Assembly: GCA_030595925.1 (NCBI GenBank)
Contig: JAUVLC010000065.1
Location: 1-13,505, forward strand
Reading direction: 5' to 3'
DNA length: 13,505 nt
From: Clostridia bacterium
GTDB lineage: Bacteria > CBDUZB01 > JAGLHV01
Shown here: positions 705 through 11,061 of the stretch, piece after piece
Position numbering within the stretch: the first letter of the stretch is position 1
How the letters are laid out: the number at the start of each line of letters is the position of its first letter
Made by a program: the position numbers and the translations under genes
The notes under the pieces: generated by a model
Told to the model about the DNA's origin: nothing
What the model saw: only the letters and a program-made list of their open reading frames with translations
Databases searched by the model: none

Positions 705-782
705 TGGGGTGGATGACGAGAGTTGAACTCGCGGCCTCTAGAACCACAATCTAGCGCTCTAACCAACTGAGCTACACCCACC
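705..782 (-). tRNA. tRNA-His (anticodon GUG)
   Basis: Read on the minus strand, a full cloverleaf is present. The acceptor arm GTGGGTG pairs with CATCCAC, the D-arm is TAGCTCAGTTGGTTAGAGC, the anticodon stem CTAGA/TCTAG encloses the loop TTGTGGT with anticodon GTG, and the T-loop is TTCAACT. The extra G at position -1 and C73, both hallmarks of histidine tRNAs, are encoded, and CCA is encoded at 705-707. It is the last gene of the Pro-Arg-His cluster. I see no clear hairpin terminator downstream. Confidence 0.95.
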
Positions 783-812: not shown

Positions 813-1151
813 CGCGCCTGGAGGGATTCGAACCCCCGGCCCACTGCTTAGCATCCAGCATCAAGTTACCCTGACCACCCGCCACTGAGTATAGACGGGC
901 TTGCTGGCTGGACTATGTCTTCACCGTCTCAGGTGTACAGCGTATAGTCTCTGAGGACTCTCGTTTTAAGTCCAGATAGTCATTAAACCAAATTTGGTAT
1001 GACTACCCGAAACTCGTACGGTTGCCTGCAAATTGCCCACTTTTTAATTAGTGGGGTTTCTTGCATATAGCTGTATCCACTCTATACGTTGTATTCCGCA
1101 TAGAGGCTCCCATTTGAAGGCAGTTGCTCTATCCGACTGAGCTACAGGCGC
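813..1151 (-). tRNA. tRNA-Arg (anticodon UCU), interrupted by a group I intron
   Basis: The minus-strand 5' exon (1151-1117) carries the acceptor GCGCCTG, a normal D-arm and the anticodon 5' stem ACTGC followed by loop bases CTT. The 3' exon (851-813) resumes with CTAA, the stem GCAGT, variable loop GGGCC, T-arm GGGGG/CCCTC with loop TTCGAAT, acceptor CAGGCGC and discriminator G. Joined, the anticodon loop is CTTCTAA, giving UCU, which reads AGA/AGG codons. The spliced RNA is 74 nt. CCA is not encoded here, although it is in both neighbours. The break lies between anticodon positions 34 and 35. The C at either side makes the boundary ambiguous by one base; I placed it so that the 5' exon ends in U and the intron ends in G, as group I splicing requires. 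Confidence 0.92.
852..1116 (-). other. Group I self-splicing intron (265 nt) in tRNA-Arg(UCU)
   Basis: On the minus strand the intron follows a 5' exon ending CTT and ends in G. P1 can form between exon CTT (1119-1117) and GAG (1109-1107), giving the required U-G pair at the splice site. P2 is a 9-bp hairpin (1105-1097 with 1088-1080). P3 is UACAGC (1075-1070) with GCUGUA (941-936). The strand CAGAGACTATA (about 953-943) and the strand AAGACATAGTCC (921-910) are the diagnostic P7 halves that form the guanosine-binding site. P8 is the hairpin CACCUGAGACGGUG (935-922). Further hairpins fit P5, P6 and P9. No ORF is present, so there is no homing endonuclease. The small size, tRNA location and P1 layout resemble the IC3 introns of cyanobacterial tRNA-Leu(UAA). 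All pairings were found by eye. Confidence 0.9.
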
Positions 1152-1165
1152 AAATTTAAAATATC

Positions 1166-1242
1166 TGGTCGGGGCGCCCAGACTCGAACTGGGGACCCCT
1201 TGCTCCCAAAGCAAGTGCGCTAGCCAACTGCGCTACGCCCCG
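1166..1242 (-). tRNA. tRNA-Pro (anticodon UGG)
   Basis: The minus-strand cloverleaf has acceptor CGGGGCG/CGCCCCG, including the C1-G72 pair typical of bacterial proline tRNAs. The D-arm is TAGCGCAGTTGGCTAGCGC. The anticodon stem CTTGC/GCAAG encloses TTTGGGA, giving anticodon TGG followed by G37. The T-loop is TTCGAGT, the discriminator is A, and CCA is encoded at 1166-1168. It is the first gene of the cluster and lies 14 nt upstream of tRNA-Arg. A short inverted repeat (AAACTC at 1251-1256 with GAGTTT at 1263-1268) lies just upstream; no convincing promoter was found. Confidence 0.95.
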
Positions 1243-10937: not shown

Positions 10938-10984
10938 GTTTAGTATTTCGGATTTCGGATTTAGTATTTGTTTTTTGTTCTTGT

Positions 10985-11020
10985 CTATGGACTATCGACT
11001 GTGGACTATGGACTGTCTTT
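10985..11020 (+). repeat. Heptad-repeat block, consensus 36-mer
   Basis: Identical to 1867-1902 and 10598-10633. It ends 41 bases before the folK start codon and is followed by the usual TTATCTTTG tail. Confidence 0.95.
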
Positions 11021-11061
11021 TATCTTTGTTTTTAATTTATTTACTTTTTGTGAGGATTTCT

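What the first reader, a model, noticed from the sequence alone, without database searches (positions are those of the whole stretch)
813..1151. Group I intron in the anticodon loop of tRNA-Arg(UCU)
The tRNA halves splice to a perfect cloverleaf, and the 265-nt insert has P1, P2, P3, P7 and P8 pairings plus the conserved P7 strands. The classical bacterial tRNA introns known to me are in Leu(UAA), fMet, Ile(CAU) and Arg(CCU). Here it sits in Arg(UCU), between anticodon positions 34 and 35, exactly the Leu(UAA) position, with a very similar P1 (exon CUU with GAG). This could be an intron that jumped between tRNAs sharing a CUU/loop context. AGA is a frequent Arg codon in low-G+C genes, so splicing may be essential.
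Basis: partly seen in the sequence, partly recalled or inferred. Interest (0 to 1): 0.75.

Follow-up and report, generated by a model that had tools for sequence, protein, structure and literature searches.

The report
Self-splicing intron in arginine tRNA gene
A small self-splicing RNA intron interrupts the only gene found in this bacterium for the tRNA that reads AGA arginine codons; the kind and the host tRNA are already known, and more than a hundred other bacteria carry one at the same place, so it is a genuine but ordinary find.

Summary
On the minus strand a 74-nt tRNA-Arg(UCU) gene (1151-813) is interrupted after U34 by a 265-nt insert (1116-852). The insert passes Rfam's group I threshold (53.3 bits, cut-off 50), has P1-P10, ends in G, and covaries with relatives in P2, P3, P4, P8 and P9. 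It has no ORF. The 2.6-Mb genome has an uninterrupted Arg(CCU) but no second Arg(UCU); AGA is the commonest Arg codon in the window. Splicing is therefore probably needed for growth (inference).

The suggested novelty does not hold. tRNA-Arg(TCT) group I introns were already reported in Beggiatoa and Thiomargarita. Thirty-eight of 111 introns compared carry a PD-(D/E)XK homing-endonuclease gene or fragment; this one is endonuclease-free. On a tree, introns group by host tRNA, and this one sits among Arg(UCU) introns from other phyla. A recent jump from Leu(UAA) is not supported; a deep common origin stays open. It is a new member of a known kind.

The parts
1117..1151 (-). 5' exon of tRNA-Arg(UCU), positions 1-34, ending ...ACUGC-CUU
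   Evidence: in-silico splicing and ARAGORN
852..1116 (-). group I intron, 265 nt, begins CAAAUGGGAG, ends GGAUG (terminal G at 852); no ORF of 60 aa or more inside
   Evidence: RF00028 53.3 bits; boundaries; ORF list
813..851 (-). 3' exon, positions 35-73, starting CUAA-GCAGU; CCA not encoded
   Evidence: sequence
1107..1119 (-). P1: exon CUU (1119-1117) with intron GAG (1109-1107), U-G wobble at the splice site; guide sequence UGGGAG
1080..1105 (-). P2, 9 bp (1105-1097 with 1088-1080)
   Evidence: 6 of 9 pairs with double changes
936..1075 (-). P3, 6 bp (1075-1070 with 941-936)
   Evidence: 5 of 6 pairs with double changes, 100% paired
1027..1065 (-). P4 (1065-1060 with 1032-1027) and, inside it, P5 (1055-1050 with 1041-1036)
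955..1026 (-). P6 with a long hairpin extension in L6, the place where a related intron (L109) carries the homing-endonuclease gene
911..949 (-). P7, GACUAU (949-944) with AUAGUC (916-911); invariant in the 8 aligned introns, which were collected with a pattern or model that favours this P7
922..935 (-). P8, 4 bp (935-932 with 925-922)
   Evidence: 3 of 4 pairs with double changes
855..907 (-). P9 region: base stem, P9a and P9b; P9b capped by a GUAA tetraloop (869-866)
1166..1242 (-). tRNA-Pro(UGG), upstream neighbour, uninterrupted
705..781 (-). tRNA-His(GUG), downstream neighbour, uninterrupted

Best explanation
A compact, endonuclease-free group I intron (probably subgroup IC3) interrupts the anticodon loop of the only tRNA-Arg(UCU) gene found in this genome. 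In the precursor, the intron's guide UGGGAG pairs with exon CUU (P1, U-G at the cut). A guanosine bound in P7 cuts after U34. The freed U34 then attacks after the terminal G, with the 3' exon CUA held by P10, joining U34 to C35 and restoring the UCU anticodon loop. The intron belongs to a lineage specific for this tRNA and found across many phyla, which probably spread by homing with a PD-(D/E)XK endonuclease encoded in L6 of some members. Shown here: gene, fold, covariation, placement among relatives. Inferred: self-splicing, essentiality, homing and loss of the endonuclease.
For: Rfam hit. Spliced tRNA. Covariation in P2, P3, P4, P8 and P9 with P1 and P7 intact. 108 pattern-scan loci with the same tRNA and the same bond. 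Guide sequence xxGGAGC in 109 of 111 Arg(UCU) introns, most often UAGGAGC, the complement of CUU/CUA apart from the U-G pair. Tree placement within Arg(UCU) introns. PD-(D/E)XK ORFs or fragments in 38 of 111 introns compared. No second Arg(UCU) gene.
Against: No splicing data. The Rfam score is only 3 bits above threshold. P10 is short (3 bp with one G-U). The assembly is 193 contigs and 97% complete, so a second tRNA-Arg(UCU) gene in a gap cannot be excluded; no CGN-reading Arg tRNA was found either, which shows that some tRNA genes are missing from the assembly or were not detected.
Confidence: 0.93

Rival explanations
1. The intron jumped recently from a tRNA-Leu(UAA) gene, helped by the shared CUU exon sequence.
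For: Same bond (after U34) and same P1 core CUU/GAG as Leu(UAA) introns. Leu(UAA) introns lie in the larger group that also holds Arg(UCU) introns.
Against: Nearest relatives are Arg(UCU) introns (76% identity over 197 columns with L262; then L257 and L150), in starred sets of 4 and 12 rows that are all Arg(UCU). Leu(UAA) introns form separate groups. The guide bases for the 3' exon differ (UUGAG or CUGAG in Leu, mostly UAGGAG in Arg). The genome's own Leu(UAA) gene is uninterrupted.
Confidence: 0.03
2. A degenerate, non-splicing relic in a dead tRNA gene, with a functional Arg(UCU) gene elsewhere in the genome.
For: Rfam score only just over the gathering score; no endonuclease; draft genome.
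Against: All core helices are intact, the spliced cloverleaf is complete, and only one Arg(UCU) gene was found; AGA is the commonest Arg codon in the window.
Confidence: 0.03
3. A protein-spliced or otherwise different insert that only resembles a group I intron.
For: None found.
Against: RF00028 full-length match, conserved P7, covarying P3, U-G at the 5' site, terminal G.
Confidence: 0.01

Closest known systems
Putative group I introns in tRNA-Arg(TCT) of Beggiatoa (BOGUAY) and Ca. Thiomargarita nelsonii (PMC4853749)
   Same: same host tRNA, putative group I intron
   Different: the paper gives only the genes and coordinates and says that structure and type were not determined; their splice bond was not checked here
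[quoted passage not shown]
   Same: same bond after U34, P1 exon CUU with GAG, similar core and size
   Different: different tRNA, guide fits AAA instead of CUA, separate groups on the tree
tRNA-Arg(CCU) group I introns
   Same: anticodon loop of an AGR-reading Arg tRNA
   Different: inserted two positions later (after the fifth loop base, U36), separate group on the tree
I-Ssp6803I-type PD-(D/E)XK homing endonucleases (Pfam PF11645; PDB 2OST)
   Same: Pfam family of the ORF in long Arg(UCU) introns
   Different: sequence match to 2OST itself is weak (E 0.16); the window's intron has no such gene
tmRNA T-loop group I introns (PMC11915505)
   Same: group I intron in a tRNA-like loop; present in a congener (G001)
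   Different: different gene and site; no blastn match to the window's intron

Membership tests
Group I intron (Rfam RF00028) | covariance-model match over the curated cut-off | tested here: met
   53.3 bits against 50
Group I intron (Rfam RF00028) | core helices P3-P8 with the P7 guanosine site | tested here: met
   P3, P4, P5, P6, P7, P8 present; covariation outside invariant P7
[quoted passage not shown]
   U34 with G at 1109, and G at 852
Group I intron (Rfam RF00028) | guanosine-initiated splicing | not testable with these tools
   needs an RNA experiment
Group I intron (Rfam RF00028) | subgroup IC3 | not tested
   core and size resemble bacterial tRNA introns; no subgroup model was run
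tRNA-Arg(UCU) gene | spliced exons form a canonical tRNA with anticodon UCU | tested here: met
   ARAGORN
tRNA-Arg(UCU) intron lineage | nearest relatives sit at the same bond of the same tRNA | tested here: met
   trees
tRNA-Leu(UAA) intron lineage | groups with Leu(UAA) introns | tested here: not met
   tree
Endonuclease-bearing mobile intron | homing endonuclease ORF in the intron | tested here: not met
   no ORF in 852-1116; present, fragments counted, in 38 of 111 introns compared

The most novel reading that the evidence does not exclude
tRNA-Arg(UCU) is one of the main bacterial tRNA homes of group I introns, hardly described so far: a lineage specific for this tRNA, spread over many phyla with its own PD-(D/E)XK endonuclease in L6 and repeatedly reduced to small endonuclease-free forms such as this one.
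Probability: 0.5. Interest if true: 0.4.

Novelty: new member of a known kind. Interest (0 to 1): 0.25.

Why it matters
tRNA finders that do not look for group I introns miss such genes (ARAGORN as run here does), so genomes seem to lack an essential tRNA. The wide set of relatives shows that introns keep to one tRNA and one bond across phyla, with the guide sequence fitted to that exon junction; that gives a ready test bed for homing, endonuclease loss and target switching.

Tried and rejected
Jump from Leu(UAA): rejected for this intron by the trees. Endonuclease gene in the window's intron: none. Kinship with the congener's tmRNA intron: no blastn match to the window's intron among those listed, and it falls on a very long branch. 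Presence of the intron in the two congeners: not decidable, as neither assembly yielded a tRNA-Arg(UCU) gene by DNA search. Naming the organism: not possible; its phylum has only three genomes held, all one genus, and the named collection leaves out its own records. Prevalence by strict pattern: 3 of 386 sampled genomes, a lower bound, since G358 was found by Rfam and not by the pattern. The cyanobacterial 'group I introns' of 22-49 nt in PMC5733544 are in my judgement far too short to be group I introns and were not used.

Full report
Observation. On the minus strand, between tRNA-Pro(UGG) (1242-1166) and tRNA-His(GUG) (781-705), lie two tRNA halves: 1151-1117 and 851-813. Joined, they make a 74-nt tRNA-Arg with anticodon UCU and complete stems (ARAGORN). 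The 265 nt between them (1116-852) match Rfam RF00028 over the full model at 53.3 bits, with a gathering score of 50 and E 2.2e-11; in the whole genome this is the only such match.

Anatomy. Exon CUU (positions 32-34) pairs with intron GAG, with a U-G pair at the splice site; the intron ends in G; the 3' exon CUA can pair with UGG just upstream of GAG (P10, 3 bp including one G-U). P2 (9 bp), P3 (6), P4 (6), P5 (6), P6, P7 (6), P8 (4) and a P9 region with a GUAA tetraloop were assigned by hand and tested on an alignment of eight related introns. Standard pairs fill 93.5% of cells; controls with the 3' partners slid by 1-3 columns give 32-43%. Thirty-one of 62 pairs change on both sides (shuffled mean 18.9); the covariation score is 0.438 against 0.183. 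The structure was derived from one of the eight sequences, so the percentage paired leans towards it, and the eight are related, so shuffles are not a strict test; the double changes in P2, P3 and P8 are nevertheless clear. P1 and P7 never vary, so they give no covariation. L6 carries a long hairpin. No ORF of 60 aa lies in the intron.

Genome context. The window's genome (2.6 Mb, 193 contigs, 97% complete) yielded 35 uninterrupted tRNAs. Among them are Arg(CCU) and Leu(UAA), both without intron. A search with the spliced tRNA found Arg(CCU) at 82% identity and the two halves in the window, and no second Arg(UCU). AGA makes 57 of 144 Arg codons in eight window ORFs. By the established decoding rules only the UCU anticodon reads AGA, so correct splicing is probably essential; this is inference. 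CCA is not encoded in the 3' exon, as in about a third of the genome's tRNAs, Arg(CCU) included; the genome has two proteins of the CCA-adding/poly(A) polymerase family PF01743.

Relatives. Of these, 108 could be spliced in silico to tRNA-Arg(UCU) with the intron after U34. Named hosts include Pseudomonadota, Bacteroidota, Bacillota, Acidobacteriota, Chloroflexota, Myxococcota and Omnitrophota, and Desulfogranum marinum of an eighth phylum. In a sample of 386 genomes across the domain, 3 have the strict pattern, and Rfam adds one more; so about 1% as a lower bound. The pattern favours introns with this exact P7, so it understates the range and overstates P7 conservation.

Mobility. Of the 111 Arg(UCU) introns compared, 38 hold an ORF, or a fragment of one, similar to a PD-(D/E)XK endonuclease. 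Two were tested against Pfam and hit PF11645 (E 7.5e-34 and 3.4e-29), the family that to my knowledge holds I-Ssp6803I of the cyanobacterial fMet intron; the direct match to PDB 2OST is weak (E 0.16). In the Omnitrophota relative L109 the gene lies between P4 and J6/7, that is in L6. Small introns such as the window's are best read as endonuclease-free forms; whether the L6 hairpin of the window is a remnant is not shown.

Origin. A tree of 106 introns puts the window's intron with L262, L257 and L150 (Omnitrophota) in a starred set of four, inside a starred set of 12, all Arg(UCU) (same result with fewer Leu introns). Labels by host tRNA need 5 changes, the minimum for six groups; shuffled labels need 36.8. 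Leu(UAA) introns (18 rows, 16 of them from one sampled phylum) form two other groups. Support for all Arg(UCU) as one group is moderate (88). Alignment of such introns outside the core is uncertain, and the quick tree has many weak forks. The guide bases differ as expected: UUGAG or CUGAG in Leu(UAA), mostly UAGGAG in Arg(UCU), UGGGAG here.

Literature. [quoted passage not shown] So the host tRNA is not new. The bacterial group I review (PMC3984707) and tRNAscan-SE 2.0 (PMC8450103) describe tRNA introns in general without this site in the passages read. The library holds open-licence papers only, so wider prior reports may exist.

Verdict. A real group I intron, correctly described, in an essential-looking tRNA gene; a new member of a known kind. 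The moderately interesting part is the size and phylum range of the Arg(UCU) lineage and its endonuclease, not this copy.

Noticed in passing
L222, L223, L224, L227, L228, L229, L230, L231, L234, L238, L239, L240, L244, L276, L279: tRNA-Asn(GUU) genes in 15 sampled genomes, mostly of different families, carry group I introns after U35 of the anticodon; two (L224, L228) contain HNH-like ORFs. One tRNA-Tyr(GUA) (L225) has one at the matching bond. One literature search found no mention of tRNA-Asn introns in bacteria.
   Followed up: partly
L041 (G001, congener), about 411-687: The congener's tmRNA gene is interrupted in the T loop by a 277-nt group I intron; the window genome's tmRNA (L071) is uninterrupted. 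A known kind (PMC11915505).
   Followed up: partly
whole genome G000: No tRNA-Arg reading CGN codons was found among 35 tRNAs although CGN makes 62 of 144 Arg codons in the window ORFs; also no Leu(UAG) or Gly(GCC). Possibly assembly gaps.
   Followed up: no
window about 1330-1400, 1600-1700, 1820-2000, 10950-11030: Repeats of the type CTATGGACTATGGACTGTGGA recur in several intergenic stretches on both sides of the window.
   Followed up: no
G171 (L241, L251): One 2.2-Mb single-contig genome has five RF00028 matches of about 350-370 nt; no tRNA context was found by my cloverleaf scan for the two read.
   Followed up: no
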